A stretch of 64,000 bases of DNA from Tridacna crocea (Eukaryota > Mollusca > Bivalvia > Cardiida > Cardiidae), in the NCBI GenBank assembly GCA_943736015.1, contig OX031071.1, positions 38,658,619-38,722,618 of the forward strand, given 5' to 3'. The position numbers and the translations under genes are program-made. Of this stretch, positions 40,972-64,000 are shown in pieces; position 1 is the stretch's first letter, and each line of letters begins with the position of its first letter. A model generated the notes under the pieces. The model worked only from the letters and a program-made list of their open reading frames with translations, did not search any database and was not told the origin of the DNA.

Positions 40972-40984
40972 TAATAAAAGTCTA

Positions 40985-41017
<33 letters not shown>

Positions 41018-41027
41018 TTACGTTATG

Positions 41028-44500: not shown

Positions 44501-44760
44501 TAAGGAGTTCTTCTTCAGCATAAAGTGAAAGAAGGATGTACAGTAAATGCCAAATATTAATCAAAGACATTGAAACCATGTTTTACAAAATAATTCATAC
44601 ATTTTAAAATGAGATTTTTTTGAAAATAAATAAAAGGATAAACATTATATATCATAATAATTTTTCAATTAAGTAAACACATAATTGTTTAACTATTTAA
44701 CTAGCTTAAATGAGCAACTGTTCAATTTTATTTTCCGTTTCCTTTTTGTAATTACGGTTG
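41500..44760. other. Unassigned ~3.2-kb segment interrupting the mariner
   Basis: Lies between two transposase pieces, so it is probably an insertion, but I could not find clean ends or a target duplication. It contains a direct repeat 'CTATAACGTCTTGAAGTATTC' (41530 and 41728), a degenerate hairpin-family member (about 42475-42540) and another at about 43995-44060. Frames of 65-92 codons (for example 41665-41943 minus, 44068-44322 plus) show no domain I recognise. Confidence 0.5.
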
Positions 44761-45370
44761 CTAAGGCATTATTTGGTACAATCACTGCGGCGAAAACGGC
44801 CATATTTAAATTTAATGGATGTGGTATTGCATTATGATAATGCTTCCGCCCACTGCGCGATTGACACAGAGCTTGATATTGCATTGTTGGGATTTAAATT
44901 ACTCAAATAGCCTCCCTATAGTCCTGACCTGGAACCCATGGATATCCGTTTATTCTCACAATTGAAAAATGAATTGACAGGTTAGCATTTTGAATCATCG
45001 GAAGTACTGCGAAACAAAGCCAGGGAAATCATCGCACAGTACAGCAAAGATTGGTTTAATGTAACTTTAGCTCAGTAGATACACAGACATAGAAAGTGCA
45101 TCGCAGCAGTTGGTGACTATGTAGGGGAAGTTAATCGTGCGCTTATTTTTTAAGTTTAGGCAACGTGACGTGAACGTCCGCGTGCTTCAAGTGTCACTTA
45201 CTGCTCTTCTTTAAAGTGGCATGCATTTTAATCTGTTTCATTTACATTTCTGAAAATTCAAACATATATCAGAAATAGACAAAAGTTTCTCTAGATTATT
45301 TTGTTTTCAAATCCAACACTCCGAATAGGAACTACACGCAAATTCGGCGAATATATAGAACAACCCTGTA
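44760..45370 (+). pseudogene. Mariner transposase C-terminal fragment and right end
   Basis: In order: 'RRKRPYL', 'VVLHYDNASAH' (second catalytic Asp context, HDNA in the family), 'PPYSPDLEPMDIRLFSQLKNEL' (the PPYSPDL block; the D in 'PMD' is at the third catalytic position, usually D in mariners), then 'AREIIAQYSKDWF' and 'HRHRKCIAAVGDYVG' near 45090-45125. At least three stops are present. The right terminal inverted repeat follows at 45343-45370. Confidence 0.88.
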
Positions 45371-45449
45371 AATGTAGTGTCAAATAGTATCGTAAATTAA
45401 ATAACTATTACGATGTGTAAAACAGAAAGTAAAATATGCATGTGTCCAC

Positions 45450-45765
45450 TAACCGGTACAACCGTACAAGTTTCCTTAAAAGAAACTTGGTGCAAAAAGA
45501 ACACTTGCCTTAATCCGTAGATGTTACCTGACCCTTTCGATATTTTTCTCCCTGTATGTCTATATTCTGCTCGGCCCATAGCCATGCAATGAGAGTTGGA
45601 CCTTTGAAAAGCAATTTTACAAAAAAAAAAAAAAAAAAAAGACAAGCAAATATATTCATATACTTACCAGTTCAATTTCCTAAAATGAAAAGAAGATAAG
45701 TGTTACGATTCAATTACGAAAGTCTTATGATTCATTTTTCATAGCAGTGACATTTCTTATGCCTT
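45450..45765 (+). repeat. Segment related to 27880-28205
   Basis: Carries 'TTTCCTTAAAAGAAACTTGG', 'GCAAAAAGAACACTTG' and 'TGTCTATATTCTG' in the same order as the left copy, with an added poly(A) run at about 45620-45640. It starts just outside the right mariner end. Confidence 0.65.
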
Positions 45766-46329
45766 ACTTCTTCATATGAGGAAACACGCAGAAAGGTTAA
45801 ATATTCATAATATAGCCTTGACTTCTAAAATACTCTGAGGTGCCATGCGACATACAACTCCCTGAGAGAATCAGTGCTGTCAGTTAGGCTCAAAACCAGG
45901 GGCTAGGATGTTACGAGTTTCATACATTACATAGAAGCCATGCACAATTCTTTCCTTTTGTGTGGGTATATAATTTATTTAATATGAACGTTTTGAAAGT
46001 CCTTATTATGTTAAATACATTCACTGATTATTGATTATTTAAAACATATGCCTAAATCGCAAATATTCTTTTTCAAAGTAAACATCTTATTTGACCAACC
46101 AATCAAAACTATTGGTCATTGATAGGGTAATATCCAAAGACAATACTTAAAAGTCTAGCCAATATATTCATTGTCAAACGTCTCATGAAACAAATATAGG
46201 TTGTTGTAAACGTTAATTCCAACTTTTCAACTATAGCACTCAATAAATAACAAAAGAAATGTAAGAAATATATAATATTCTATTGTCAAATGAATGAAAT
46301 AAAGTCCTGACAATGAGTGAAGAAAGGAA
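45766..46329. other. Intergenic sequence, no gene seen
   Basis: AT-rich with no long frame and no identified transposon end. Confidence 0.4.
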
Positions 46330-47500
46330 AAAGACCGAATCGCCGAGGAGAACTTTGTACTGGAAATGAAAATGAAAAAAAAAGTCCTGTTATGTAAGGG
46401 TCCACAATAAATTGAAAGAGAAGTTAGAAGAAGAAAAAATAAATAAAGACAAATATAAATATTTACTTGTAAAAGTAGAAGAAGTATTAGAAGCTTTAGT
46501 GGAAGTCATGCAATCATTATATGAATTTGAGGCTCTCTACAAATAAAATATTACCAAGACAAAATGAATAAAATAATTATACAAAGAAATTGATGAAACA
46601 GGAAAGAAGTATGAAAATTTAGTTGATTATAATTATGAAATTATTGGAAAAATATGTCAGATGGTCCCTCTGAGTATAGTGAGAAAATAGTAAAATCTGT
46701 TAGGTAGTAACTTATGGCAGCAATTTAAATGCATCCCAACATTTTACGATAATAAGGCCAAATTTCCTGCATGGACAAATGTATTCTAGTCTTGCGTGGA
46801 TGAGACAGGCTCTTCGAATGAGTAACAAAAGCTACAGTTAAAGCAATACATGAGTGGAGCAGCTTTGAATTCAATTAAAAATCTTGGCCATTTATCGAGA
46901 CCCTAAGTAGAAGCAAACATTAGGTTAGAAAGTTTGACTGCTCTAACAGAGTTGTAATTAGATTACTGGATGAGTTGGAAAATTCTACACCAATTAAGGA
47001 TAAAAACGAAAATTAGTTTGAAAAGTTTTCAGATTTGCTTGATATTGCTGTAACCAATTTGAGAGAAGCAAACCAAGGTAATGACTTGAAGAATGGGTAG
47101 CTTTACAAAAAATGATAGACAAATATACCTCAATCGATCCTTTAAAGATACCATAGACAAATATCTGAAAGGAATCTGAGTCAAAGGGTTGAAGAGGAGA
47201 CGGAAGTTGTTATCAGGGCACGCGAGATCATAAATGCGATATCAAATGGAAGTCATGAAAGCAGTAGAGCTAAACCTTTCTTTGGAAATAAAAATAATAA
47301 TAAAAAAACAGGATAAAAAATGCCCAATCTGTAATTATTCTCATAAAAATTTGGGATTGTCAAGACTTCAAAACAGTGGTTGTCGAAAAAGGGCTAAAAA
47401 ACCCAGCTAGAATGTGTTCTAGGTGTGTGAAATCAAACCATGTAGGGAAGAAATGCAGATTTTTAAACATGACATGTTACACAAAAGAAATATATTTAAG
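46330..47500 (+). pseudogene. Pao/BEL-like LTR retrotransposon gag, degraded
   Basis: Reading across frames gives a lysine/glutamate-rich coiled region (46330-46550), then a stretch equivalent to 'IPTFYDNKAKFPAW' (46737-46778) and 'LKQYMSGAALNSIKNLGHLS' (about 46840-46900), phrasing I associate with Pao/BEL gag (DUF1759). A cysteine cluster 'CPICNYSH...C...CSRCVKSNHVGKKCRF' (about 47320-47460) corresponds to the gag zinc-knuckle region. Many stops and shifts interrupt it, so it is a long-dead copy. No LTRs were identified. Confidence 0.7.
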
Positions 47501-48050
47501 ATTCGTAATTGCCCCCCTGAATAGAATATTCACTTAGTTTTTATATTGGTAAAATCCAGTAGATGAACCACATGACTGCGAGTTTAACAGACTTACTTTT
47601 GGAGTGTCGTCATCACCATTTCTTGCACAGATAGTATCACAGTATAATGCTAAGTTACATAGAAATTAGTTCTCTGGAGCAGAATAAATTGTGCTAAAGT
47701 CAACTTATATAGATGTTAGAATAACCTCAGTCAATGGTGAAGAAGACGTATTTTAAACCCTTCACCCAAGTAGTTCTTTTGTTTTCTTTAACAAAGCAAG
47801 AAGGTTCATAATCAAATTCAAAATAATTGATAGACCAAATAACCATTGAAGACAGCGTATTAGAATAGACTTAACCAACGAAGAGCTAGCAGAAGTGAAG
47901 TAGACATTACATGTTTTGTGGGTAGCTGATAATGATTTGTTTTGGTTCAATCAAACGAATTTAGGTTCTGAGTTAACCCAGAGAAATTATTCAAGAAAAA
48001 CAGCTACATTGTATGACCACATATGACTAGAGCAAAAATGATAATGCAGG
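47501..48050 (+). pseudogene. Probable Pao/BEL protease-region remnant
   Basis: Follows the gag remnant in the same orientation. Pieces such as 'RIDLTNEELAEVK' and 'LHVLWVADNDLFWF' (about 47860-47950) resemble the region after the aspartic protease in Pao elements, but the match is weak and stops are frequent. It may be unrelated debris. Confidence 0.35.
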
Positions 48051-48860
48051 GTGTTTTGGTAAGTAGAATTGATTGAGATCATCAAATATTGGTCCCAGTG
48101 TTTTGTAAAAGGAACATGTACATCTTACACTCGTTTGTCATTTGATGTTTTACACCCTTTAAGATATCATTTAATCAATATTGCAGTGGCCAAATCTATC
48201 AGTCATGCTCTTCTGTCGGTTCCTGTACAATTATTTTTCTTATCACTTCCAACGTTAGAAATGTCAATAAAAATAAGAATAACTAAAAACGATTTCTTAA
48301 GACAAAACGACACTCTCGCAATAGTTGTTATATCATAAAGGGCCCTTTTATTTGAAGAAAATAGTTTCACCGGGGGGGGGGGATTTTTGTTTCTCTGTAA
48401 TATCCTCACAGAAACTTCCGATTAAGGTTTTCCTCAAATATTTTTTCTTTTATAAGTATTCTTTGTGCTTTAAACATGATTTGGATTGTGTTAAAATGCT
48501 ATTTAAAAGGACTATTCAGTGGATAAACTCGGAAAGTTTCTAATTTATATAAATGAGCTGTCTTGCAAGCGGCTCTAAATAAGATTTAAATAGTAATGGT
48601 CATCAATATTCTGATCTGTGCTTATATTTGGAAAGGTAGTGCTTTTGTTTTCCACTTAACTGAGAGTTTTGTTGAATTGTATTTAAGAATATCGATGGCG
48701 ATAGAATGAAAGCAAAACAATAATGAAATTAAACAATACACTAAAACAATTGCAAATCTACATACACTCGTTCTCTCCGCATCTTCTTTTGTACCCTGAA
48801 GAAAATACAAAAAAAAGCTGTATTACTAAAAGCAATTGATAAATATGGTGATTTCTTTTT
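48050..48860 (-). repeat. Duplicated segment, copy I (microexon-bearing)
   Basis: Shares ordered blocks with 53900-54700 and 55900-56420: 'ATCATAAAGGGCCCTTTTAT' (48331-48350) versus 'ATCATAAAAGGGTCC' and 'ACCATAAAAGGCC', then 'TTTCTCTGTAATATCC', then 'ATTCAGTGG'. It is followed about 420 bases later by microexon 1. Moderate divergence outside the exon shows the duplication is old. Confidence 0.6.
48766..48795 (-). other. Putative 30-nt microexon 1
   Basis: On the minus strand it lies between a pyrimidine-rich tract ending TTTTCTTCAG and a GTATGT donor. Read in frame 0 it gives GTKEDAERTS. Thirty bases preserve reading frame when spliced in or out. Four similar copies occur downstream on the plus axis, all on the minus strand. 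Confidence 0.5.
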
Positions 48861-49700
48861 TCACAAGTATTTCTTCCAAGATTATTACAGATAAAACTTA
48901 GTTACAAGCACCTAAAGAAGTCTTTAATTGAAATCTACAGACCTAGGCGGCTCTAAATAGATGAAAGAAATAGACAAAAATAGTCATAATCACTCATATG
49001 CATGCTCCCCTTTTTTTCTCGTTTGTTTGCTTTCTACCTAATTGAGAGGTTTGTTGATTTTTAGTGAAAAGTAAAATCTTCATAGAAAAAATAAAAGCAA
49101 TCATCAAAGATATTTCGGCCAATATTTTCTCCAATCGTTGCTAATTCTAATCAGTATTATTTGTGGTTTGAAGATTAGTTTGATTGTTTTGTTATCAGTT
49201 AATTGAGTTTTTTAGCAGTTTTTTAGCAGTTTCAAAAAACTGCTAACGTTTGCAATATATAATATTGAAAACTTTTGCTAGCGGGTGAAAAAAGTCATCG
49301 TTTTTCTAGTGGTTACTTTAATCAAAGTTCAAATATTTATTGACAAATTTATGGCAAAGCTAGTTGCCTTTGGCCATTTACATAATTATACATACATTGT
49401 AAATATGGCAAGGTCATGTACTGTACAGCAATCAAAACAAGAAGTTTTGATCAAAGAAAAGAACAATTCAAAAGATAGAACAAAACTAATTTCCAAATGA
49501 TCACAATGCTGGAATTTTGTACCTTGGTGTAAGTAAGCGAGGTGGTTATTTATGAGATAAAGTTTGCTTGCTTATTACATAAATATGGTAAGAAGATGGT
49601 ATCAAAAGAAAAAGTGTACGTCCACAAAAAAACACTGGATTTGAAATAAAACTAGTAAACAGATGGATAATGTAACTGACTGATAAACTCTTGTGCTGTG
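48861..49700. other. Intergenic sequence with a degenerate duplicate segment
   Basis: Near 49020-49140 it repeats blocks found just upstream of the microexons ('TAATTGAGAGGTTTGTTG', compare 'TAACTGAGAGTTTTGTTG' at 48658), but the exon itself is not recognisable. An inverted repeat occurs at 49212-49245 ('AGCAGTTT...AAACTGCT'). No gene called. Confidence 0.4.
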
Positions 49701-50970
49701 GTCATAGTAAGCTATGTAGTATTCCGTCTTAAAAGATTGATTTCATAATTCCATTCAATTTCGTCGTACCCATATATTCCCCAAATTTCGGCCCCGTATA
49801 GCATGATTGGTGTTACAATAGTTTCGAACAGTTTTAATTTGGTCTGTCTATCTTTTTGAATTTTATCAAATAAAATCAGAAGATTGTGATAGGCTCTGAT
49901 GACTTTCTCTACTAAACTTTTTACATAGTATCTAAAATTGCCAGAGTAATGTAAATTTACTCCCAAATAACAGAAACATTTTACTACTTCAAGTTGTTGG
50001 TTATCTATCGTCCAGGAATAATTATTATTTGATTTTTCTCCTCAAATATACATTTTTTTGTTTGTGTTGATTTTTAAGCCATTTCTTTCAGAATATGTAT
50101 TAATATTGTTTAACTGTAACTGTAAACCATCAGGAGAGGTTGAAAGAAGAGCAATGTCATCTGCAAATAATAACATATAAAACGTCAAAATATCGAAATT
50201 TGTCTCGTATAAATTTTCAAGATCTAGGCTACCGCTTATGTCATTTATGAAAAATAAAAATAGTATTGTGGATAACGGATCGCCTTGCTTAAAGCCAATC
50301 GAAACATCTAGAAAATCGGAATACTTATTTTCATTCGTTAATCGTATGCATGATTTGACGTTACTATACACAGATCTGAGCATATTCACCATTTTACAAC
50401 TTACTCCTAATTTTATTAGCTTGTCCCATAAAGTATGTCTGTTTATTGAATCAAATGCTTTCTCATAATCTATGAAAGCACAATACAATTTACGTTTGTT
50501 CAAAACACCTTTTGTATGACGGTATGTAATAAAAAAAAATACAACCGACTGTGCTGCATTTGTCTCTAAAACCAAATTGTGAGTTGTTAAAAAGATTTTC
50601 ATTTTCACTCCATAAATTTGGTCTGTTCCTAAGAGCGAGTGAGAACAATTTACCTAATATATTTACTAATGTAATACAGGGACATTCTGTCGTATTTGTT
50701 TTCTCAACCTTTTCATGAACGGGTACGATTATTCCCTTTTGCCCATAGAGAGGGGTAAATACCTGTTTCAAATATTTTATTAAAAACTATTGTTAAATAT
50801 GGTGCTAAGAAAGAAGAGCCGTCTGTCAAAAACTCGGCAACATTTCCAGTAAAATCAGCACTGTTATTTCTATTGAGACATTTTATTATTTTTGTTATTT
50901 CCTCTACAATCTAACTCTACTACAGTTAAAATAGAATCCCTTTGCGTACTTTTATGATTTGGAAGCTGGT
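49700..50970 (-). pseudogene. Non-LTR reverse transcriptase fragment, frameshifted
   Basis: Read leftward from about 50960. The fingers region contains 'NILGKLFSLALRNRPNLW' and 'NNSQFGFRDKCST'. The palm (50042-50608) has 'CAFIDYEKAFDSINRHTLWDKL', 'GFKQGDPLSTILFLFFINDI', 'LLFADDIALLS' with an intact FADD, and 'NGLKINTNK'. The thumb (49712-49966) ends 'TPIMLYGAEIWGIYG'. At least two shifts and one stop separate these pieces, and no endonuclease precedes them, so this is a 5'-truncated, inactive copy. The clade is unclear; it differs clearly from both intact elements in this window. Confidence 0.88.
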
Positions 50971-51129
50971 TCTTTTTGTTTTCTTCTTAAGTCAGAACTT
51001 TTTTCCGAAAACAAGATTGTAATCAGTTTTACCTTTACGACATATTTGGCCCATGGGGTGAATTATATTTTTATACAAGGGAAAATGTATATTGAAACTG
51101 TTGCTAGAGATATCGTTTTCAAGAGAACA

Positions 51130-51475
51130 TGGATAGTCTGGATATTTCCTCCTACAATTGTCGAGGATTGAAGAACGAGAAAAAAAGGTTTAATTACTAT
51201 ACACTTTTAAAAGAAAATAACTTTGATGTTTGATGTTTGCAAGAAACAAACTTCTCCGTAAAAATTGAGAATAAATATCATCATGAATGGGAAGTCAACT
51301 CCGTTTTAGCCATAGTAATAAAAACTCAAAGGAATAAAAAAGGAATAAATAGGGATAAAGGTATAACAATTTCTATGCAAAAAAGAGATTCAAACGGGCA
51401 ACTTATAACCATTAAATTTTCATATAGTGACATATCAGCCATCCTTGTAAAGGTATGCAGAGAACTCAACAACAG
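51130..51475 (+). pseudogene. L1/Tx1-like endonuclease fragment
   Basis: Gives 'DISSYNCRGLKNEKKRFNYY' and then, after a stop in place of 'ILCLQET', 'CLQETNFSVKIENKYHHEW' and 'RDSNGQLITIKFSYSD'. These align in order with residues 3-105 of the intact ORF2 at 36824. The copy breaks off at about 51475. It is a dead relative of the same family. Confidence 0.85.
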
Positions 51476-51734
51476 CTGATCACTATCAAAGATGCTGGGG
51501 TAAGTGAAATGGCCATTTACCTCTGAAAGTTAAAAATCCTATCGCTTGACAGTATTTTGTGTACACTTTCAGATGCACATTGCTTTCTGGATCTACCAAA
51601 ATACGTGTCGATTATCACTATTGTTGACGCCTGTAAATGTACTATTTCCGGATTAACTTCTCCAAAAGCGAATCACGTGATATCACGAGTCTTAGACTCA
51701 ACTCAAACTTAATTTTACCCGTCTACGCTAGAGG
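51476..51734. other. Unassigned spacer
   Basis: No ORF or repeat end recognised between the endonuclease fragment and the SINE-like units. Confidence 0.35.
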
Positions 51735-52260
51735 AGACCGCTCCTTCATGCATGGCTTCATCCCGATTTAGATACAGAACCAAACAACTGCGTCTGACAG
51801 TATTCTCTTTTGCACAGTGGTTATGGAGTTGGTCTTTTTAAACTTCAATAAAAGAGGATGTTGTCCGCATGGTCTCGAATCCCGCCAGGTGCAGTTGTAT
51901 TTCGGCTATGCTATGCATTTGTTGCTTACTTCCATGTTCGTAAGATGGGGGCTCCTCCGAAATTGGCCATTCAGCTATTAATCCCATCTGTTGTCCAAAA
52001 ATGGACTTTCTGCTTAATAAGGCTTTGAATTTAAAAGGGGATGTGTTACGGAATACCGCTCCTTCATTCTTGGCTTCATCCTGGTTTAAATACAATACCT
52101 AACAACTGCAATAGGGAGTAATTTTTTTAGCTCAGTGCTTATGGTATTGACCTTTCGTCCGAGCGTTCTAGGTTCGAATTCTTCCTTGACCCTGTATTTC
52201 TGTGTGCATTTGCTCATTCGTTTCTTTGTTACCGACTTTGTTTGTAAGAACGCTGTCAAA
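51735..52260 (+). repeat. SINE-like tandem units (about 320 bp), about 1.6 copies
   Basis: Each unit begins 'GACCGCTCCTTCATGCATGG' or a variant (51738, 52058), then 'TTTAAATACAATACCTAACAACTGC'. The second holds a tRNA-type A box 'TAGCTCAGTGC' (52128-52138) and B box 'GGTTCGAATTC' (52171-52181). The first has a damaged equivalent ('CAGTGGTTATGGAGTTGG', 'GTCTCGAATCC'). The family recurs at 63.4-63.9 kb. Confidence 0.75.
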
Positions 52261-52783
52261 CCATGAAGAATTGACCTATGCAAGATTATGTAACAACAGT
52301 CTCTGGTAATTCTGATTATATTAGAAGAATAAAACATAGTTGTGGTTCACACATTTTTATTTTAGATCGCGACCAAGGAAGAAACCGCCAGCTAAATGTT
52401 AACCATGAAAAATATCAAAGCTTTATATTATTCTATTGTATGGCAAGATTAACCAGAGACAGGTTAATCTTTGGTGTTGTTCTTTAATTGTTTTTTCTTG
52501 TAATTCTCAAACATATGAGATATTAATGACTTTTTTAAGTAGAAAGCACCTGCATACGAAAATGTAAAAGTGGTTAAATGAGATTTTATTTTTAACTTGT
52601 ATTGTAGAAAATAGTGTGTGGAAAGATAAAATGATTGTAACAAGTAATTTCGTGACAAGCAATTTTTCCTTTTTCTAAAATATTTTAGAAAAGAGGTTTG
52701 TATCAGACACTGTAAAATATGGGATTATTTGGAACATACATGTATAAATATCAAGAGAGGTGTTATAATACAGCCTGGTTGTT
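52261..52783. other. Intergenic sequence, no gene seen
   Basis: AT-rich. The short frames at 52278-52487 (plus) and 52464-52658 (minus) show no recognisable motifs. Confidence 0.4.
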
Positions 52784-53877
52784 ATAATATTTTTGAAACT
52801 GATTTGAATACTTAACAATGTTGATAAAATATGAGAATGTCGGTTTAATCATGCCATAATACAAGTATAATGAACAGCAAACGAACTTCACTATAACATT
52901 CATGTGCAAACGCTGCACACACACAAACTTAGCAATACAGTTTTGGTCTAGTAAAGTAAAAAATGAAAAAAAGGTTGTTTATAAAATCTCTAAGATTTGA
53001 ACATTTAGCCATGAACGTTTTCCTTCAATTACATCTGCGAAAGTAATAATAATTTCATGATATCTGATGAAACAGCACCATATTTATAAATACGAGCCAT
53101 GTTCTGTAAATAGATGGTTGCTTAATCCATCAGCCAAAAGGAACCGATCCATGTCAGCTATTTATAAGTTTTTTCTGCTTGTCTAAGGACAAGGAGATTC
53201 AGTCAGTCATTGGACTGAACATATTTTATGGATTTATAATTACATGTATGTGATGACTTGTTTGATATTATACATTATGAAAATGTAACAAGCCCCGTTT
53301 GCCAGAGCATAGCTCACAAACATGTACATGTATCATGTACCAGTAGCTGCCCTGGGTCTTTCGTGTTAGTGACCTTAGGCAAGACACCTCAGAGCCATGC
53401 CATAGTACTGATGAAACCACGGATATAGTTTCATGAATTTGTGAACGTCTACCGTTTTATCTGAAACACTGTTGATCATGGAGAAAGTCACCATTCAACC
53501 ATTCAATCTCTAAATTACGTGTTTTCAAGATCACCCATATCATCGGAATCACCTAGTAATCCGGGTGCTTCCTTGCTCAGTAGTACAGTGTAGGTCTTGT
53601 AACCTTAGGGCCCCGGGATCGAGCCTCAATGGACGAACTTGGTCTTTCGCGGGAGTGTCCTTGGACAACACATCTCAAAGCCCTAGCATAGTACTGGTAC
53701 AACCAAAATATACATGAATACATAAGCTGTCGCTGTAATATGTCCCGAAATAGAGTTGAAAGCGGCATAAGACACCATTAAATCAATTAATCTCTTAATT
53801 GTGCTTTTTTCTGCATTCCCTTAGTGCTGACCTTATATGCTTTGCCCAAGCACATTCCCATGAAGAACGCCGGTACA
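52784..53877 (+). repeat. ~1.09-kb duplicated segment, copy 1
   Basis: Near-collinear with 61184-62248 in direct orientation about 8.4 kb away: from 'TATTTTTGAAACTGATTTG' to 'CATTCCCATGAAGAACGCCGGTAC'. Copy 1 has short extra stretches (for example near 53060-53120). It contains 'GGGCCCCGGGATCGAGCCTC', whose complement has a B-box-like string, but no clear A box. A 63-codon minus-strand frame is shared by both copies and is likely incidental. Confidence 0.85.
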
Positions 53878-53899
53878 CCTGAAAGTTTCGATCATTGTT

Positions 53900-54500
53900 T
53901 AGTGTTTTACATCTTTCTTTTCTTATTATTTTATTCATATTGCTAAGGCACTTGGTCATGTTTTTTCTAGAGATTCCTTTACCAATACCTTTGCATATTA
54001 CTATGTTCAAATTACTTCCCACGTACATAACAATGACACGAGAGAATAACAAACAGAATGTTTTTGACGACAAGCCCATGCTTTTTAAATAGCTGGATTA
54101 TCATAAAAGGGTCCTTTGATTTGATAAAATATTATCACGTCGAGAAGGTTTAAGATTTTTTATTTCTCTGAACAACTTCGCAGATTGCCAGTTTTGCAGT
54201 ACTTTCAGTGCTTTGCATATCAGATTAACAGTCGGTCGAAAGGGCCATTCAGTGGCTCACCGTATTACTGGTAAAGTTTGTAATACATTTATGCTAATGA
54301 ACGCTTTTTTAAGCGGCAAAAATGTTCATTTTTTTCTTTTTTTGTTAGCGGAAAAAAAGTCGGCTTTAAATGTTGTTCTCGTTTTGAAATTAGATTTATC
54401 TATTGTCTTTGTGGCAGGTTAGCTGATCTGTAGTAAATATCTTTCCCTTAATAAATATCATGATTCGGAAAATGATGAAAATGTCTACATCAACGTATTT
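53900..54500 (-). repeat. Duplicated segment, copy II
   Basis: Aligns with 48050-48540 and 55900-56420: 'CCTTTACCAATACCT', 'GAGAATAACAAACAGAATG', 'TTATCATAAAAGGGTCC', 'TATTTCTCTGAACAAC', 'CAGTGGCTCACC' and 'GTAAAGTTTGTAA'. Microexons 2-4 follow at 54629, 55045 and 55567. Confidence 0.65.
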
Positions 54501-54628
54501 CCTCTGTTCCTTCCTTTGCACCCTGCAGAAATCAGAAAATAATCTAAATTTTTTTTTACGGAAATGTCAAATCGTTGAAATATAGAAATAAACGGTATAA
54601 AAGATTAAGTGATAAAACATCAACATAC

Positions 54629-54659
54629 ACTCGTTCTCCCAATGTAGGTTTTTTATACC
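54629..54659 (-). other. Putative microexon 2 (31 nt, degenerate)
   Basis: Flanked on the minus strand by TTTTTTGCAG and GTATGT. The 3' half 'GAGAACGAGT' is identical to microexons 1 and 3. It is one base longer than the others and breaks the GTKED-type reading, so it may be a decayed copy. Confidence 0.4.
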
Positions 54660-55044
54660 CTGCAAAAAAATGTATTATTTTGAATCCTTTTCCATGAATA
54701 GGATGAACTGTTTCCACAATTATTTTTAAGTCATTAAATGTCAAAAAATTGTTTTAAATAGATTGCGCAGTGGTAGATAAAAGCAGTATGTCTCCTTTAT
54801 TTAATCAAAATTCATTAGCTTATCCTTGAACTTATAAATAAATTTGTACTATATTATATCATTATTAGTTTTGCAAGAGAATGAAAATGAAAAAAAAAGT
54901 GACCGTTACTATAATTGTTGCTTCCAGTTTCTGTTTCAGTAAGTTTTCTTTTTTTTTAACTTGTAGTGAAAACATGTACATGTATATTGAAAGGAAAAAT
55001 TCCAAACAAAACTAAAAAGTAAACAAAGGTATATATCTACATAC

Positions 55045-55074
55045 ACTCGTTCTCTCTGTAGTTTCCTTTGTACC
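55045..55074 (-). other. Putative 30-nt microexon 3
   Basis: The acceptor tract is rich in C and T and ends CATTTTTGCAG; the donor is GTATGT. Reads GTKETTERTS in frame 0. It differs from microexon 1 at one silent position (AAA/AAG) and by replacements in two codons. Confidence 0.5.
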
Positions 55075-55566
55075 CTGCAAAAATGAGAAAGAAAGGCTGT
55101 TTTATGTAAGTAGCGACGTATTAAAATTCACATATTAAAGATACTTTTGCTGTACAGGTGGTCTAGGAATGTTAATTTGGAAAGCAACACGATTTTGAAA
55201 ACCTTTATTGCTCCATTTTGCTCTGTTTCACAGACTGCTTCTCTTGTTCAGTACATTTGGTACTTTGAAAATGAATTGGATTGTTTGAATATTACTAAAA
55301 ATGTTTTTCAGGCTCACTCTGGAACTGGTAATTACTAATGACTTTGATAATGAACACAATTTGGAACTGGGAAGAAAAAAATGAGAAAGCGAAACCATTA
55401 ATCTTATCGTCAGTCTTGTTGTTGTTGTTTTGAAAGCATGTGCTTTTTGCTAAGTGGTTAAATGACGGTTTTAATAATCTGTTGTAACAAGCAAGGTTTT
55501 TTAGAAAAAGAACGGAAGAAAGGAATATAATGACAACCGACATGAATGATAAAAACATCAACATAC

Positions 55567-55596
55567 ACTATTTTTCTCTGTATCTTCTTTTTTACC
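55567..55596 (-). other. Putative 30-nt microexon 4
   Basis: Acceptor CTATTTTTGCAG, donor GTATGT. Reads GKKEDTEKNS in frame 0. Confidence 0.48.
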
Positions 55597-55889
55597 CTGC
55601 AAAAATAGGGGAAACCATTAGTCTTTTTTTTTGAAGCAGATGAGGAAAATATTTTTACAAATATTTCTTTAAAATGTCATTAGATTCTAGAGATATGTGC
55701 AAGCAGGCTAAAAGTTAAAATCTAAATATCTTTGTTTCAACTTTCCTTAGCTGTACAGGTGGTTTGTAAATGTCAATGGGTGAAGCTCCATGCCTTTAAA
55801 AACTTAAATCGCATCGTAACTGTTGTCTAATAAGTGTTTTTTGCATACAAGTAATGGTACAACTGAGCATTCGTTTGCTGTTTTATTTT

Positions 55890-56440
55890 TACACCAATTA
55901 TGATATTATTTCAACCTTATTGAGGCGGCCCACACACTTGATCCAGTTTTGCTGTAGATTACTTTACCAATACTTGACGTATCTCTTTGGTCAAGTCACC
56001 TTACTCATAAACCATGTTGAAACAAGAGATTAACAAGCAGAATAATGTCTAAAGGCTACACCACGGTTTTGCAATAATTGGTTTACCATAAAAGGCCACT
56101 TTAATTTAAAAAAAAAATATTTTCGAACGTGGAGTTTTCGTTTCCTATTTCTCTGACCATCCTGAAAAGGGTTAATCAATGCCGATAATTATTTCCCGTA
56201 CCGATTTCTACCTTTATTCAGTTTTTTGCTATGCATAATTATGACTTGGATTATTTAGATGTTGGTGAAAAAGGTTATACAGTGCCTTACCCAGGAATAT
56301 GTAAAGTTTGTAAATATGAAAATGAGCACTATAATCAAAATGATGAAACCACTATTAGGAACGTCAACATTACTGTAATGGTTACATTTTTTTTTCTTTT
56401 GGAAAGCTGCTGCTTTTTTGTTTCTTACTCAACTTAACGT
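55890..56440 (-). repeat. Duplicated segment, copy III
   Basis: Matches copies I and II at 'TTTACCAATACTTGACG', 'GAGATTAACAAGCAGAATAATG', 'TTTACCATAAAAGGCC', 'TATTTCTCTGACCATCC' and 'TGTAAAGTTTGTAAATATG'. A short plus-strand frame (56231-56437) lies in it but has no motif. Confidence 0.6.
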
Positions 56441-57469
56441 TTTTTTCCTTTAATTAAGATAACTATCATTAAGAAAAAATGAAATGCAAGCCATGATGAG
56501 CTCGAAGGTTCTCCCATGAGCCTTTTGATCATACATGATCCATTTTTCTATGACTTTGGGGATATTATGACTAACAGTCTAACAAGCTTGAAATCATAGT
56601 TATTGGGCTGAAAACTATGCTCTGCTTTGTACACAATCTATTTCTCGATTTTTTCTCATTGACCTACAAACACTACCCATTTTCCAAATGTAGATATAAT
56701 CAAAACAATGATTCTGGCACCTTTTATGAGCATTTGACAGAAAATTTGGCCTCTTTAGAGTGCACAAGATTTTTTTTAAAAGATTTAACATGGCAACGAA
56801 GTGTTTACTTAAAGATGCCTGTCTACAGTTGGTGAGCAGAAACGCTCTTAAATTTCAAAAAGAAAAACAGAATGGTACAGAAATCTGTCCTTTGTGTACA
56901 CAAGGATAAATTACTGACATATATCGTGTAAATGAAAAAAGAAACACGGGGGTTTGTGTGAGAAACCGAAAATTGGCCAGAAGAAAACTGGCTGACGATC
57001 GAAGCTGTAAACAATGACGGTGACTCACGGAAAGTTATCGTTGGTTTCCGCCTAGAGTCGGATACGGTGTAACTTACATATAGGCCTCGATCTCCGTCTA
57101 AAAATAGAGGCTACAACATAGGAGCATCCATTTTCCTTTATTTACCGCATCAATGCCAAGGTCAAGTATAGTCACGTTACAGTATGCATGATCATCATAC
57201 GAATCTACCCGAGTGTCTAACGGATATCGAAAATCTTCGATTCAAAATCCGGAAACGACCAGTCTGTTTACATTGAAGGCCGCAAGTCCGCGAAATGCAT
57301 TTTCTATCGGGCGTAATCTAAGCAACCTTGCAACCGTCAGGCGCGATGTTTGGCATAGATATATAAGAATGACTATATTTTGATAAAATAAAAACAAAAT
57401 GAGTAAAAACTGGCTTAAATGAGTATTATTGTCTCTTTAATATGACCCGTTTTCATCTTATCTTATTAA
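56441..57469. other. Intergenic sequence, no gene seen
   Basis: Frames at 56617-56835 (plus) and 56823-57014 (minus) are short and motif-free. The part from about 57000 to 57360 is less AT-rich and contains several CG dinucleotides ('CGGATACGG', 'CCGCGAAATG', 'GGCGCGATG'), but I see no exon signal strong enough to call. Confidence 0.35.
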
Positions 57470-58400
57470 TCATCAAGACAAACATTGTGACTAACGTTCA
57501 TATGTAATGCACAAAGATATTCTGACAAAGTTTCATGAGTATTGGACTGTAACTGTGGTATGTAGAGCGTATACAACGTTTTTCTAAGACTGAATCTAGT
57601 GACCAAGCTTTTGACTCATTTTCAAACTTGCTGGAAACATTATCAAGACAAACACTTTAACAAATTTTCAAGAGTATTGAACTAAAAATGTGGCCTCTAG
57701 AGCGTGCGCAGTGCTTTTCTAAGATTTGACCTTGTGAGCTAGTTTTATGAACTGATATAATCTATTTTCGGACTAGTCTTAATTATCACTATGACATGCC
57801 TTCTGACAAATTCACAAGCATATTGGACTGAAAATAGAGCATAAACAGTTTTTTTTTCAAGGATTGAACCTAGTGACCAAGTTTTCATCCAACATGACCC
57901 TTTTTCAAACTCCTAAGATATATCATCAAGACAATTATTCTGACCCAGAATTATGGGTATTGAATTGAAAATATTGCCTCTAAAGTGTATGCAAGGATTT
58001 TCAAAGATATGATCTAGTTTTTGACCCAACACGACCAATCTTTAAACTCGTTTGAAATATAATCAAGACATTATCAACACATTCTTAACAATTTCCATGA
58101 GCATTGGCCTAAAAATATTGACTGTAGACCGTATACAAGATTTGATCCAGTGACCTAGTTTTTGACCCAACATGACCCATTTTCGAACTTTTTCGAAATA
58201 TTATCAAGAAAAGGATTCTGATCAATTTCCATGAGTTTCAAACCAAAAATGTAGCCTGTAGATTGCATGTACAAGTTTTTCTATGATTTGACCTGGTGAC
58301 ATAGTTTTCTACCCCTACATGACCCATTTTTTAACCCGTCCGAGTAATTATCAAGGTACACACCCTGAATTAAAATCATAAGTGTCGGACTGATAAGGGG
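57470..58400 (+). repeat. Tandem ~145-bp repeat, about six diverged units
   Basis: Recurring order: 'ATCAAGACAAACATT', 'TCTGACAAATTTCATGAG', 'TATTGGACTGAAAAT', 'GCCTCTAGAGCGTA', 'TTTTTCTAAGATTTGACC', 'GTGACCTAGTTTTTGACCC' and 'ACATGACCCATTTTCGAAC'. The last motif recurs near 57625, 57765, 57895, 58035, 58180 and 58320. I recall this unit as a widespread bivalve repeat, which would need a database search. Confidence 0.8.
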
Positions 58401-58545
58401 ACATCTACAGTTCATACAAGGTAAAAGTTGAAGACACAAGACAGATACCGCAGGACACACACCGCACTGCGCACACCGGACGCCGGACACAGCACAATTA
58501 CAACAGCTTTCCTTAAGCACTTTGTGCTCAGGTGAACTAAAAAAC
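58401..58545 (+). repeat. Terminal part of the tandem-repeat element
   Basis: CG- and CAC-rich stretch ('CGGACGCCGGACACAGCAC') followed by 'CTTTGTGCTCAGGTGAACTA', a terminus type seen on bivalve repeat elements. It directly adjoins the tandem array and probably belongs to the same element. Confidence 0.6.
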
Positions 58546-58585
58546 AAATGACACAATACAGAAAGTGATTCAAATATTTACATAC

Positions 58586-58615
58586 AAGCGTTTCCTCTGT
58601 GTCTTCTTTGGTGCC
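58586..58615 (-). other. Putative 30-nt microexon 5
   Basis: Acceptor TTACTTTTGCAG, donor GTATGT. Reads GTKEDTEETL in frame 0. Relative to microexon 1 it has silent changes in the Gly, Thr and Asp codons (GGC, ACC, GAC). Confidence 0.5.
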
Positions 58616-60265
58616 CTGCAAAAGTAAGACACAATAAAAGGTGGTGTTCCGAAAGTATACTAAAGTAAAATATGCCCACGCTTAGATTTTCCTCATATTG
58701 TAATTATTTGTTGCCATGGACAACGCAGTTATGAAAAAGGAGATTTTACTCCTCCAAACACCCAACAGGAGGGGACATTACAGCCCCTCATACAATATCA
58801 TGTCTAGAAAAACGGTAAGCAAACAAAGATCATAAAAAGTTGCATAGGTTTCGAATGAAGAAGTATTGTTTTGAAAATTTGATTTATTTTTCAATTTAGA
58901 TTCAATATATTACTCAAAAACTCCCAAAAGATGACAAAAATGAACTTAAATCTGAAGTTCAAGGGTTCAAAACCAAACCTTAGAAGTCAAGGCTGGTTCT
59001 TATATTATCTGAAATTGAGAAACACTGTACACATGATAGTCTTCTTTGTGTTCAAAAGTATAGTAAAATTCGGAAATCCGATTAGACTAACATGACAAAA
59101 AGATGTATTCTGTGTGACACCGGTTCATCTGGTACCAAAGACTAGGTCACCGGACATGGTCAAAGTCAAATTTCAAGGTCACATTTCTGCAAAATACTTC
59201 ATAATTTGGCTTAACTTTTTTGTGGTAAGTAATAGGATTTGCATATTTCATATGTACATTTTTTGCGGTAACAACTTTATTCTAACTACCAAGGTAAAGG
59301 TCATCTGACAATGTTAAGGTAAAATTTCAGGTCACATTTGTACAAAATTATTAAATGCTGAGCATAACTGTTTAACTGTTTAATCTGTTGTCAAAGTTAT
59401 CTGTCACAGTCAATGTCGCTTTAAAATCTAATGGCAGTTATAAAATGCATTCTTGATGATGTTTTGAACTATTTCTTAAAAAGAACCCGGAAGTTTTTTT
59501 TAAACTTCGTCTAATCCGAAAAGATCGAAATTAGGATTTGTGCCCAGCTGACTATGCTTTAAGTATAAATAATTTCGATTGACATGATTCCTGCAGAGGA
59601 ACCTTTAGAATATATAATTTGGGGCAAAAGGTTGTCTGAAGTAATAAGTGTACGACCACGATGGTCCAGTATCGCTCCATTCCCTATTAAAAAAACATGC
59701 ACCTTATTGGCAAAGACATAAACATAAATAAAAGAAATCTGTACGGTAATAAAGTGTCAAAGGGGAATAAATTTTCCCACTAAAAGGGTCAAACATACAT
59801 TTTCTTTCTCAAATAAATTAATGAAATATCATCAATAGCAAAGACCTAACCACTTTGACTTTGACAAACAGAACTTTGACGAGACGATTTTCAAAACTTA
59901 CTTGCAGAAAACTTTATTTTAAATGGCATGAATGATTAAGTTCAGAAAAAAAATAATTATAGAAACCTTGTTTCTTATCAAATATTCAAGAGGATCTAAA
60001 AATAACTGTTAACATCAGAATAAATCAATCTTAGTGAGTGCAGAACATTTCTTTCCAACTAACGTGAATACCCAAAGCAATCATGGAAAATGTAGCTGGA
60101 AAAAGGTCAAGAGGTATTTTCAAGCTCTTTGACCCTAGAGTGGTACTTAGGACCCCAGTTATATTTTTGTTCTAGTGTTGTATGGATTGTAGAAATATTG
60201 TTTTCCTATCGCAGTCGTGTTCTTTAAGACCAGCGTACTGTAACTAGGTCAATGTTGGAGCAAGT
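58616..60265. other. Intergenic sequence with old repeat traces
   Basis: Two units of a 'GGTCA...AATTTCAAGGTCACATTT' repeat lie near 59155-59190 and 59300-59345. 'TTGTTGCCATGGACAACG' (58708) resembles a dispersed palindrome. No gene is supported. Confidence 0.4.
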
Positions 60266-60728
60266 GACAGATGTTTCGGTAACAAACGAGTTCGGTAATA
60301 TAGACTTATACAGTAAATCGATTGGATGTTTCGGTACAAAACACTTATATTATGTTTTTGTTGTGTGACGTTCTTTACACCTAATGTATTGCTTTGTTTT
60401 GTGCAGACCTTTTACTTTTGCATGTTTCAATAATTTATCCCTTGATAGATAGGTTCAAATCCTTTATTTTTTTCACTTTCCACCCTTTTCGCTTGATAGA
60501 TATGCAATCCACATGGCCAATACATACAGCATGGAATGAGGTTCATAACGAAAAAACTATTTATAAAACATAGTGGAAATTACAAATTAAGGTTTGAATA
60601 ACGAACGTCTGAATAAAATAAAGTCATGCGTTGGGTGTAAACACTATATAATTGCTTTGTTACCGAAGCATCCAATTGATTTACTCTTTAGGTCTATGTT
60701 ACCAAACTCGTCTGTTACCAACACATCC
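60266..60728. repeat. Inverted repeat, ~75-bp arms
   Basis: The left arm 60266-60340 ('GATGTTTCGGTAACAAACGA', 'AGTAAATCGATTGGATG') is the reverse complement, with about ten mismatches, of the right arm 60652-60728 ('TTACCGAAGCATCCAATTG', 'AACTCGTCTGTTACC'). About 310 bases separate them. The shape is that of a MITE or foldback element, but the outer ends are not resolved. Confidence 0.75.
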
Positions 60729-60754
60729 GTAAATCTTTGGAGCGCCTGGTTTGA

Positions 60755-60846
60755 CTGGTATTATACCACCTCTCTAGTCTATATAGATATAATAAGAACT
60801 TCATTCAAGTCTTTATTATATCTATAGAGAGGGATTGTATGATACC
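60755..60846. repeat. Long near-perfect hairpin
   Basis: 'GGTATTATACCACCTCTCTA' pairs with 'AGAGAGGGATTGTATGATACC' and 'ATAGATATAATAA' with 'TTATTATATCTAT', leaving a ~16-base loop around 'CTTCATTCAAG'. Alone it could fold as one ~38-bp-armed stem. Confidence 0.7.
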
Positions 60847-60918
60847 AGACATATGTGTTAGAGTGTCAGATTTAGCACAATCCGATAACAGACTTTTTCT
60901 TCCGTTAATGTATGGTAA

Positions 60919-60971
60919 TTCAGTGCCGACAAATGTTTGTTTGTGAGTGCCGACAAATGTTTGTTTGTGTA
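60919..60971 (+). repeat. Short tandem duplication (~24 bp)
   Basis: 'GTGCCGACAAATGTTTGTTT' occurs twice in a row starting about 60922 and 60946. Slippage duplication. Confidence 0.7.
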
Positions 60972-61183
60972 GACAAAATCTTACGACGATTTTCTCCACA
61001 TGTGCAAATACTGGATGTTAAACGTGACAAAATGAGTCACGTGATCAACAATGTGATTCCTACTGAGCTGTTAAACGATCACGTGATTTTCATAAACGGT
61101 TTAACGCGGCCCAATGCATTGTGCCCTGTTACAAAAAGTGATTTGCGGCGCCATTGATGTTCAGCATCAATATTTTCTTGCAA

Positions 61184-62248
61184 TATTTTTGAAACTGATT
61201 TGAATACTTAACAAGGTTGATAAAATATGAGAATGTCTCAGTTAAATCATGCCATAATACAAGTATAATGAACAGCAAACGAACTTCACTATAACATTCA
61301 TGTGCAAACGCAGGATACAAACAAACTCAGCAATACAGTATTGGTCTAGTAAAATAAAAAAATGAAAAAAAAGGTTGTTTATAAAATCTCCAAGATTTGA
61401 AAATTTAGTCATGAACGTTTTCCTTCAATTACATCTGCGAAAGTAATAATAATTTCTGCCAAAAGGAACCGATTCATGTCAGCCTGCAAAGTCCGCCCAA
61501 ACTGACAGGAGTGAAAATTTTGCTATTTACAAGTCTTTCTGCTTGTTTAAGGACCATTCTTCTTCCAGATTCAGTCAGCCATTGGACTGGACATATTTTA
61601 TGGATTTATAATTATGTGACGACTTGTTTGATATTATACATTATGAAAATGTAACAAGCCCCTTTAGCCAGAGCATGGCTCACAAACATGTACATGTATC
61701 ATGTACCAGTAACTGTCTTGGGTCTTTCGTGTTAGTGACCTTAGGCAAGACACCTCAGAGCCCTACCATAGTACTGATGAAACCACGGATATAGTTTCAT
61801 GAATTTGTGAACTTCTACCGTTCTATCTGAAACACTGTTGATCATGGAGAAAGTCACCATTCAACCATTCAGTCTCTAAATTGCGTGTTTTCAAGATCAC
61901 CAATATCATCGGAATCACCTAGTAATCCGGGTTCTTCCTTGCTTCGTAGTAACGTGTAGGACTTGTAACCTTAGGGCCCCGGGATCGAGCCTCAATGGAC
62001 GAACTTGGTCTTTCGCAGGAGTGTCCTTGGACAACACATCTCAAAGCCCTACCATAGTACTGGTAAAACCAATATATACATGAATACATAAGCCGTCGCT
62101 GTAATACATGTATGTCCCGAAATAGTGTTGAAAGCGGCATAAGGCACCATTAAATCAATTAATCTCTTAATTGTGCTTTTTTCTGCATGCCTTTAGTGCT
62201 GACCTTATATGCTTTGTCCAAGCACATTCCCATGAAGCACACCGGTAC
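61184..62248 (+). repeat. ~1.07-kb duplicated segment, copy 2
   Basis: Collinear with 52784-53877. It lacks some of copy 1's sequence near 61455 but carries an extra stretch at about 61480-61530 and 'CATGTATGTCCC' near 62106. The end 'CATTCCCATGAAGCACACCGGTAC' matches copy 1's end; flanking sequence then differs. Confidence 0.85.
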
Positions 62249-62932
62249 CGTGGTTGAAATAATGTTTTATTGTGCAAAAATTGACAAAACTAGCATTTGC
62301 CCACAAAGTCCTTAGTTATATACTTAGCAGACCAAAACGTCCGTGGCCAAATGATATAGGCCAAAACGTCTCGGCCAAAACGTCCGTGGTCAAAACATCC
62401 TACATTCGGTAAAACAATACCCCTACCTTCTTCATCCAGAGGAGGAGCTTAAAATAGAATCTACAGTGACTTTAGCAAAACCATGACCATCCTAAATAAC
62501 TGATCTGCTGAAATATCCAGCTAGTAATCGTGGAACATGGCTTACCGGCTGACCATCAACATCTACAGCCCTGCTCATGAGTAATTGAACAGTGTATGTT
62601 ATCGGTAATGGAATTTAGTGGTGTAACCACAGTAAACAAGCTCAATTGTCATGGATATTCAGTGTATTCAGGTTCAACAACTACATGTGTAGGAATTGTC
62701 TAATATATTGTGGCTACCTATAAATCACCGGATTTAATTTAAACCCCAGAAATGGGAAAAATCAGAGTAAGAATAAAGTTTGAATAATTTGAACTTTAGT
62801 TGAAGAACATTGTAGGAAGCACAGTTAAAGTGGGGAAAATGTTTTAATATAAAAACAACTTTCATTTTTAAACATGTGGATCTACATTATATAAAGCCAG
62901 GAAAATGGCTAGAAGTGTCACTGAATGTGACT
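62249..62932. other. Intergenic sequence with a short AAACGTCC tandem repeat
   Basis: At 62333-62400 the motif 'GGCCAAAACGTCCGTGG' occurs about four times in degenerate form, similar in style to the foldback-element arrays. Otherwise no feature is seen. Confidence 0.5.
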
Positions 62933-63218
62933 TAATACCCCCACCAGCGCTTTGGCAGAAACAGGCTATTGAAAAAGAAAAAAATGTTAGTTCAAGGGGA
63001 GATTACCCTTAAATCATAGGGAGGAGATTATTGAAAACTGAGTCTTGCACACCTTCAATATATGAACAATATATGTGAAAAGTTTCAACACCATTGAAAG
63101 AACGCTGTAGAAGGAGTTTGCGACACAAAATTACTAGTATATTGTACACAGACGGACACACGGCCAGATAGGCTGATTCCAGTATACCTTTGAAAACATT
63201 TGTTCTGCGGGGGTATAA
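62933..63218. mobile_element. MITE with TWATACCCCC terminal repeats
   Basis: Left end 'TAATACCCCCACCAGCGC', right end 'CTGCGGGGGTATAAT', inverse to each other over about 11 bases. The 286-bp interior includes 'GAAAAGTTTCAACACCATTG' and 'GACGGACACACGGCCAGATA'. No coding capacity. The superfamily is not clear. Confidence 0.65.
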
Positions 63219-63389
63219 TGAAATAATTAAGAAGTAACCATTGTAGGAAAAAGAGAAAATATTTCAATTTCATGCTAATTCAGAGTTGGTTAACCTGTTT
63301 TTCTTTTCACTAAGTAGGATTGGCATGATTATTACGGTGGAAAAAATGATTCATAAATGGGTATTATGGGAAAAAGAACTATTGATAAT

Positions 63390-63880
63390 GTTACGGGACA
63401 CCACTCCCTCATGCATGGCTTTATCCCGTTTTAAATACGATTCCTAACAACTACGATAGGGAGAATTCTATTTAGCTCAGTGGTTATGGTGTTGGCTTTT
63501 TGTACGGGTGTTCTAGGTTCGAATCCTGCCCGGTACGTGTATTTCTGCTATGCATTTGTTCATATGTTTCTTTGTTTCAGAATTTGTTCGTAAATTTTTG
63601 GCTCGTCCGGGATTGGCCAGTGGGCCATTAATCCCGACTTTCTACCTAATAAGGCTTTGAGTCATCAATAGATGATGACTTAAAGAGGGGGTATGTTACG
63701 GGAGACCACTCCTACATGCATGGCTCTATCCCGGTTTAAATAAGTGCATTAGGGATTTTTGTCTCTAAGTCATTGGTTATTGTGTTGACCTGTCGTCCGG
63801 GCGTTCTAGATTGGAAACCTACCCCATCCCTGTATTTCTGCTATGCATTTGTTCATTTGTTTCTTTGTTAAGGACATTAT
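63390..63880 (+). repeat. SINE-like tandem units (~305 bp), about 1.6 copies
   Basis: Units start 'GTTACGGGACACCACTCCCTC' (63390) and 'GTTACGGGAGACCACTCC' (63695). The first has A box 'TAGCTCAGTGG' (63473-63483) and B box 'GGTTCGAATCC' (63516-63526), consistent with a tRNA-derived polymerase III promoter. The second is degraded ('AAGTCATTGGTTATTGTG', 'TAGATTGGAAACC'). A shared tail includes 'GGGATTGGCCAGTGGGCCATTAATCCC'. Confidence 0.78.
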
Positions 63881-64000
63881 TAGTACAAATACGGTAAAAT
63901 TCTCTAATCATTTTTCAATAAATAGTAAGGGATAAAATGTGAAAGATCAAACTGCCCATCTGGCACAAATGCTGTGTGAATCAATAAAAGTTGTAATTGC

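What the first reader, a model, noticed from the sequence alone, without database searches (positions are those of the whole stretch)
48766..58615. Five repeated 30-nt putative microexons on the minus strand
At 48766, 54629, 55045, 55567 and 58586 the minus strand carries a 30-31-nt sequence between a polypyrimidine-AG acceptor and a GTATGT donor. Four copies are exactly 30 nt and read GTKEDAERTS, GTKETTERTS, GKKEDTEKNS and GTKEDTEETL. Differences in the first five codons of microexons 1, 3 and 5 are largely silent (GGT/GGC, ACA/ACC, AAA/AAG, GAT/GAC), while flanking intron sequence has diverged much more. This fits tandem duplication of an exon under selection, perhaps for mutually exclusive or cumulative splicing. 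No larger partner exons were recognised, so the gene is unknown.
Basis: partly seen in the sequence, partly recalled or inferred. Interest (0 to 1): 0.78.

Follow-up and report, generated by a model that had tools for sequence, protein, structure and literature searches.

The report
Tandem array of 30-base cassette exons
One stretch of an animal chromosome carries 25 related copies of a tiny 30-base exon-like unit in larger repeated blocks; if spliced, they would let one gene make a threonine-rich protein of many lengths, but no transcript has been seen.

Summary
The five minus-strand elements are real; a sixth, decayed copy lies at 54493-54522, and 19 more lie outside the window: 25 copies over 67 kb of one chromosome. 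Whole-genome searches found matches only in this cluster, though the pattern recovers only 10 of the 25 local copies, so distant copies could be missed. Copies form seven classes in repeated blocks. Nineteen of 25 keep AG, GT and an open length divisible by three; class D and some E/F copies are decayed. I read this as a birth-and-death array of phase-0 cassette microexons encoding a Thr/Glu/Lys-rich, probably disordered decapeptide repeat. The silent-change argument fails over the whole set: pN/pS 0.63, equal to its null. Exons are not clearly more conserved than neighbouring intron windows. Donor sites are the best conserved part between classes. No host-gene ends were found and nothing here shows transcription. 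The architecture resembles schistosome SmPoMuc 27-bp exon arrays and titin/nebulin repeat blocks; kinship was not shown.

The parts
58586..58615 (-). microexon A4, GTKEDTEETL, 30 nt, AG and GT present
55567..55596 (-). microexon B5, GKKEDTEKNS, 30 nt, AG and GT present
55045..55074 (-). microexon C5, GTKETTERTS, 30 nt, AG and GT present
54629..54659 (-). microexon D5, 31 nt, splice dinucleotides kept but length not a multiple of three: decayed
48766..48795 (-). microexon G5, GTKEDAERTS, 30 nt, AG and GT present; last copy found in the array
55935..56159 (-). intron segment shared with 53949-54174 (68% over 232 columns): relic of an older duplicated unit
53949..54174 (-). intron segment shared with 55935-56159

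Best explanation
This is the 3' part of a 67-kb array of 25 related 30-nt exon-like units (six in the window) in one minus-strand locus of a eukaryote. SHOWN: one cluster in the genome at the sensitivity used, block structure, splice dinucleotides kept in most copies, 30-nt length in all 20 copies outside class D, decay of other copies. INFERRED: the units are phase 0-0 cassette exons, each adding a decapeptide of the type G-T-K-E-D/S-T-E-E/K-T-S. Any subset can be joined without a frame change, so the gene would make a Thr/Ser- and Glu/Lys-rich, acidic, probably disordered linker or mucin-like stalk. Its length would vary in 10-residue steps by exon inclusion and, over evolution, by gain and loss of blocks through unequal exchange. 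Host gene, ends, expression and function are not known.
For: Only this cluster matches: 7 of 7 DNA matches and 10 of 10 pattern matches, reversed control 0. Of 25 copies 24 keep AG, 21 keep GTATGT and 19 are intact with an open 3n length (counted). The donor region is the best conserved part between classes: mean identity 0.88, acceptor 0.76, exon 0.74, intron 0.70, over 14 of 15 class pairs. Gap openings between classes are 75 over 63 pairs in the 62-nt exon-plus-splice stretch, about 1.9 per 100, against 5.4-9.4 per 100 in intron (counted). Ab initio scan of 260 kb: 25 minus-strand and 17 plus-strand candidates above threshold; four of the 24 minus ones printed are these microexons (C1, A1, A2, A3), with acceptor scores 11.7-13.5, the highest printed, tied at 11.7 by one exon of another gene. 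Of 23 self-matches in 46-60 kb, 11 pair two exon copies. Frame 0 is open in all five class consensuses tested; frames 1 and 2 have stops in one and two of them. The 18 intact 30-nt copies joined in silico: 33% T+S, 28% E+D, 18% K+R, pI 4.7, GRAVY -1.93.
Against: No transcript data. No start, terminal or domain exon found: Pfam scans of part of the flanks gave nothing above a curated cut-off on the minus strand; first- and last-exon candidates equal the opposite-strand control, 3 v 3 and 7 v 6. No excess of silent change: pN/pS in frame 0 is 0.68 between and 1.22 within classes, and the other frames are no worse (between 0.60 and 0.94; within 0.77 and 0.74). In block alignments intron windows are as conserved as the exons: exon ranks 65 (C), 418 (E), 1119 (D), 2878 (F) of 3066 and 47 of 1766 (A); in the two-copy comparison 737-5769 of 6566. 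In the length-matched test the fraction of intron 30-mers as conserved is A 0.16, B 0.46, C 0.21, D 0.93, E 0.43, F 0.93; product of gap-free fractions for A, B, C, E, F 0.058, with D left out after seeing it had gaps. 6 of 25 copies are broken.
Confidence: 0.52

Rival explanations
1. A relic: a once-used exon copied by block duplication, now no longer spliced or part of a dead gene. Copies look exon-like only because they descend from a real exon.
For: 6 of 25 copies have lost a splice site or the frame; pN/pS is not below its null; exons rank no better than many intron windows; classes D and F vary as fast as introns; no host exons found.
Against: Donor best conserved even between old classes; all 20 non-D copies keep 30 nt although intron gaps are frequent; classes A and C differ less in exon than intron (A 0.033 v 0.142, C 0.080 v 0.216), though not significantly.
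Confidence: 0.25
2. Mutually exclusive cassette array (Dscam-like): one decapeptide variant is chosen per transcript.
For: Homologous equal-length exons side by side on one strand.
Against: 30 nt is a multiple of three, so nothing forbids joint inclusion. No test of RNA pairing between introns was made. Many copies of a low-complexity peptide suggest added length rather than choice (inference).
Confidence: 0.1
3. Exons of a non-coding RNA, or conservation for purine-rich splicing enhancers rather than for peptide.
For: The exons are rich in GAA-type purine runs (seen in the sequence; the enhancer role is recalled); no protein-level constraint detected.
Against: 30-nt length in all 20 non-D copies and one frame open in all five class consensuses tested.
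Confidence: 0.1
4. Transposon or satellite debris with chance splice-like ends.
For: The locus is rich in LINE-type ORFs, LTR elements and 432-435-bp satellites.
Against: No match outside one 67-kb cluster in 1.05 Gb with up to 3 mismatches; all 25 copies on one strand. The pattern recovers 10 of 25 local copies, so this is not proof against old diverged copies.
Confidence: 0.03

Closest known systems
SmPoMuc polymorphic mucins of Schistosoma mansoni (PMC2576457, passages seen)
   Same: A 27-bp exon 2 with its introns repeated in tandem (units of about 1 kb, at most about 20 genomic copies), coding a 9-residue repeat; frame-neutral; predicted pI 4.3-5; several repeat types.
   Different: Here 30 nt and 10 residues, seven classes in multi-kb blocks; one cluster instead of a multigene family; no signal peptide or 3' exons found; no transcript; sequence kinship not tested.
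Schistosome micro-exon genes (MEGs; PMC10526429, abstract and passages seen)
   Same: Very short exons (3-81 bp) separated by long introns.
   Different: MEG proteins keep an N-terminal signal peptide, not found here; here one exon type is duplicated, whereas MEG exons are mostly unlike each other (recalled).
Titin PEVK and nebulin segmental repeats (PMC6469411, passages; PMC9142044, abstract and outline)
   Same: Blocks of exons duplicated within one gene; gain and loss of repeats; retroelements in the region.
   Different: Microexons of 30 nt, no Pro/Val-rich motif; no muscle domain found nearby.
Oyster alternative oxidase with a duplicated, alternatively spliced exon (PMC5589949, listing and start of abstract)
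   Same: A duplicated exon used alternatively, in a mollusc.
   Different: Two mRNAs of one enzyme gene, not an array of 25 microexons; that this window is molluscan is recalled, not tested.

Membership tests
SmPoMuc-type repeated-exon mucin | short frame-neutral exon repeated in tandem with its introns | tested here: met
   25 copies, all 20 non-D copies exactly 30 nt; block repeats. Exon status itself rests on sequence only.
SmPoMuc-type repeated-exon mucin | signal-peptide exon upstream and constant 3' exons | tested here: inconclusive
   candidate counts equal the opposite-strand control, 3 v 3 and 7 v 6; no Pfam match above cut-off on the minus strand in the part scanned
SmPoMuc-type repeated-exon mucin | variable repeat number in transcripts | not testable with these tools
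   no RNA data
Micro-exon gene (MEG) superfamily | gene of many short exons with signal peptide and MEG motifs | tested here: inconclusive
   only one exon type found; no further exons of the gene identified; MEG motifs not searched
Mutually exclusive exon cluster | one exon of the cluster per transcript | not testable with these tools
   no RNA data; 3n length allows joint inclusion
Dispersed transposable element | many copies through the genome with shared flanks | tested here: not met
   7 of 7 and 10 of 10 matches in one cluster; the pattern recovers 10 of 25 local copies

The most novel reading that the evidence does not exclude
A single gene with 19 usable frame-neutral microexons of several sequence classes in higher-order blocks generates, by combinatorial inclusion, a large set of mucin-like surface or secreted proteins differing in length and sequence: an independently evolved parallel of the schistosome SmPoMuc system in a probably molluscan genome.
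Probability: 0.2. Interest if true: 0.75.

Novelty: new variant of a known kind. Interest (0 to 1): 0.45.

Why it matters
If spliced, it would be an array of microexons in higher-order repeat blocks: a natural case in which to watch exons being born, kept and lost, and a source of protein length variation that routine annotation could easily miss because each exon is only 30 nt. It would parallel SmPoMuc, where repeated 27-bp exons diversify proteins at a host-parasite contact. If it is not spliced, it shows how exon-like relics can be amplified with their splice sites.

Tried and rejected
Transposon debris: not favoured after the whole-genome searches. Link to the downstream peptidase-like gene (38613288-38619274, minus): its first recognised exon starts in phase 1, not 0, and 8.6 kb upstream of three of its four paralogs holds no such microexon; not excluded, because its own upstream exons were not found. 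Link to the next gene (from 38590323 down to about 38580k): its exon 'TTKTESKTEE' looks alike and is phase 0, but an ATG exon in an ACCATGG context lies about 2.3 kb before it, so I take the likeness as chance. Spliced retrocopy elsewhere: none recognised; 17 match rows at E <= 10 (150 of 176 candidates scored), of which I looked at one locus (2 of the 17 rows), an unrelated TK..AEETVQ repeat protein. That search does not recover the array's own 30-nt exons, so it is weak. Repeated minus-strand ORF 'VKIGHISLPKKG...' downstream as a partner exon: six copies, all local, but its flanks are about as conserved: undecided. My first within-class estimate looked stronger than the better anchored ones; I rely on the latter. 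The multiple alignment was useless because its windows overlapped. Rfam: no match in the window at gathering scores. Literature: no paper held the three decapeptide strings searched; none held bivalve + microexons + alternative splicing; one held micro-exon + bivalve, a vaccination review seen as listing; of 18 listed none has a molluscan microexon array in its title; one paper, a Dscam1 review, held the six terms.
Full report
OBSERVATION. The five minus-strand elements are present as described, and a sixth copy with a lost donor lies at 54493-54522. In a matrix built from the four 30-nt copies these score 48.0-55.7 and the held-out sixth 33.8; three first-order Markov sequences of window length reach at most 9.4, and the best non-member sites of the real window 16.0 and 17.6.

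EXTENT. The window is C16:38658619-38722618 of an unnamed 1.05-Gb assembly with 31 contigs. I think it is a mollusc, perhaps a bivalve, from recalled repeat families; no call tested this. A DNA search with copy 1 plus flanks gave 7 matches, all on C16, minus strand, 38707118-38773731. A 35-place pattern with up to 3 mismatches gave 10 matches in the genome, all in the same cluster, 0 for the reversed control; it recovers 10 of the 25 local copies, so it would miss diverged copies elsewhere. A scan of 38580200-38840299 gives 25 copies between 38707384 and 38774247, all on the minus strand. The 20 copies outside class D score 55.6-72.7 (18 of them built the matrix). Class D scores 7.9-25.8, partly because of its length changes; D4 (9.2) and D5 (7.9) lie in the background range (one non-member 9.1, plus-strand maximum 8.2), and I count them because of their place in the block and their aligned flanks.

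STRUCTURE. In transcription order: C1 D1 E1 F1 | A1 | C2 D2 E2 F2 | A2 | C3 D3 E3 F3 | A3 | B4 C4 D4 E4 | A4 | B5 C5 D5 E5 G5. The window holds the last six. Class sizes: A 4, B 2, C 5, D 5, E 5, F 3, G 1. The longer block alignments range from about 80% to 97% identity, for example 87.2% (6780 columns), 89.5% (2851), 94.0% (2970), 95.3% (1645) and 97.1% (799). Two elements with end repeats 98.9% and 96.8% alike, read as LTR elements, sit inside the array. Of 25 copies, 24 keep AG, 21 keep GTATGT, and 19 have AG, GT and an open length divisible by three: 18 of 30 nt and D4 of 33 nt. The six broken ones are D1, D2, D5, E4, E5, F3 (counted). All 20 copies outside class D are exactly 30 nt.

SELECTION. 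Between five class consensuses, exons match at 22-24 of 30 ungapped, flanks at 11-21 of 40. With gaps, intron homology extends for hundreds of bases in several pairs; mean identities over the 14 of 15 class pairs with at least one alignment through the exon are donor 0.88, acceptor 0.76, exon 0.74, intron 0.70 (B-C rests on 1 of 10 pairs, B-E on 6 of 10, C-E on 0 of 25). Intron identity in local alignments is inflated: 60 random pairs of 930-mers give 0.735 over a median of 92 columns. Their scores have median 37 and maximum 193; six real example pairs score 92, 92, 164, 180, 208 and 330, so not every one exceeds the random maximum. Gap openings between classes are 5.4-9.4 per 100 intron columns; in the 62-nt exon-plus-splice stretch they are 75 over 63 pairs (counted).

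Within classes, one search gave exon v intron differences A 0.033 v 0.142, B 0 v 0.026, C 0.080 v 0.216, E 0.087 v 0.128, but D 0.181 v 0.131 and F 0.156 v 0.106. Better anchored block alignments are less favourable: exon windows rank 65 (C), 418 (E), 1119 (D) and 2878 (F) of 3066, A 47 of 1766, and in the two-copy comparison between 737 and 5769 of 6566; many intron windows are as conserved or more. (homopolymer-free, gap-free intron 30-mers) puts A at 0.16, B 0.46, C 0.21, D 0.93, E 0.43, F 0.93, none significant alone. The product of gap-free fractions for A, B, C, E, F is 0.058; D, whose exon has gaps, was left out. pN/pS in frame 0 is 0.68 between and 1.22 within classes; frames 1 and 2 give 0.60 and 0.94 between, 0.77 and 0.74 within. 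For six consensuses it is 0.63 with 42-49% of null draws as low; for the subset A, B, C, G, chosen after the fact, 0.40 with 18%. So splice-signal and length conservation are indicated, but peptide-level constraint is not demonstrated.

PEPTIDE. The 18 intact 30-nt copies, joined in silico, give a 180-residue chain: T 23%, E 22%, K 14%, G 11%, S 9%, pI 4.7, GRAVY -1.93; K at position 3 is in 18 of 18 and E at 7 in 17 of 18. A disordered linker or O-glycosylated stalk is an inference from composition.

HOST GENE. Not identified. Pfam scans of the minus strand gave nothing above a curated cut-off for window 38901-48800 and 54101-64000, L014, L015, L016, L023, L027 (three frames each) and L024 (two of three frames plus two ORFs). 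Below cut-off were HC2 (E 3.9e-5, repetitive stretch) and Extensin_1 in L027, DUF3915 (E 0.021) in the window and Man-6-P_recep (E 0.0058) in an L024 ORF. Of the rest only one ORF of L022 was scanned on the minus strand (no match). The ab initio scan gives 25 minus and 17 plus candidates in 260 kb; four of the 24 minus ones printed are these microexons. First-exon candidates with a hydrophobic start upstream: 3 v 3 on the opposite strand; last-exon candidates downstream: 7 v 6. Neighbours: an IgGFc_binding ORF on the plus strand at 38836435-38837760 (E 4.1e-37), which may bound the locus upstream; a minus-strand gene at 38613288-38619274 with a GDSGA motif (peptidase label recalled) and four paralogs; and a further minus-strand gene that appears to start at 38590323.

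MECHANISM. Most likely: frame-neutral cassette exons included cumulatively, giving a repeat protein whose length changes in 10-residue steps; block duplication by unequal exchange adds exons and mutation removes them. Splicing, coding and function are inferred; the cluster, the blocks, splice-site retention in most copies and decay in others are shown.

KNOWN PARALLELS. SmPoMuc genes repeat a 27-bp exon 2 with its introns, at most about 20 genomic copies, giving 9-residue repeats (PMC2576457, passages). MEGs consist of short exons and long introns (PMC10526429, abstract and passages). Titin PEVK regions have been duplicated in tandem, with LINE-1 help in some primates (PMC6469411, passages); titin and nebulin contain intragenic segmental duplications (PMC9142044, abstract). 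In an oyster a duplicated exon of alternative oxidase is alternatively spliced (PMC5589949, listing and start of abstract). Kinship with any of these was not tested.

VERDICT. A real, single-locus array of exon-like units, a new variant of the known kind 'tandem exon array', awaiting RNA evidence.

Noticed in passing
window 3987-16137 and 23181-24109: Arrays of a 432-435-bp satellite, about 90-92% matches, with related units continuing below the window.
   Followed up: no
window 31268-34477 + and 36809-40609 +: Two long open LINE-type ORFs (1069 and 1266 aa), and a LINE-type fragment on the minus strand at 49715-50653 between microexons E5 and G5; element labels recalled.
   Followed up: no
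C16:38637668-38651354 (outside the window, minus strand): Six local copies of an ORF 'VKIGHISLPKKG...' behind a good acceptor in three of them, in 6.2-kb tandem blocks; 6 of 6 genome matches are here. Flanks about equally conserved.
   Followed up: partly
window 1980, 11470, 16841 (minus strand, ORF starts): Three near-identical copies of an ORF 'EKKRILEIHFQEANMCYTCF...' behind a strong acceptor; the genome search for it did not complete.
   Followed up: partly
L036 (C18:31039819-31040559, minus strand): A 504-aa open frame of TK..AEETVQ repeats running into what looks like an Ig domain (recalled), possibly a titin-like protein.
   Followed up: no
L019:6136-7461 + (C16:38836435-38837760): IgGFc_binding domain ORF on the opposite strand upstream of the microexon array.
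   Followed up: no
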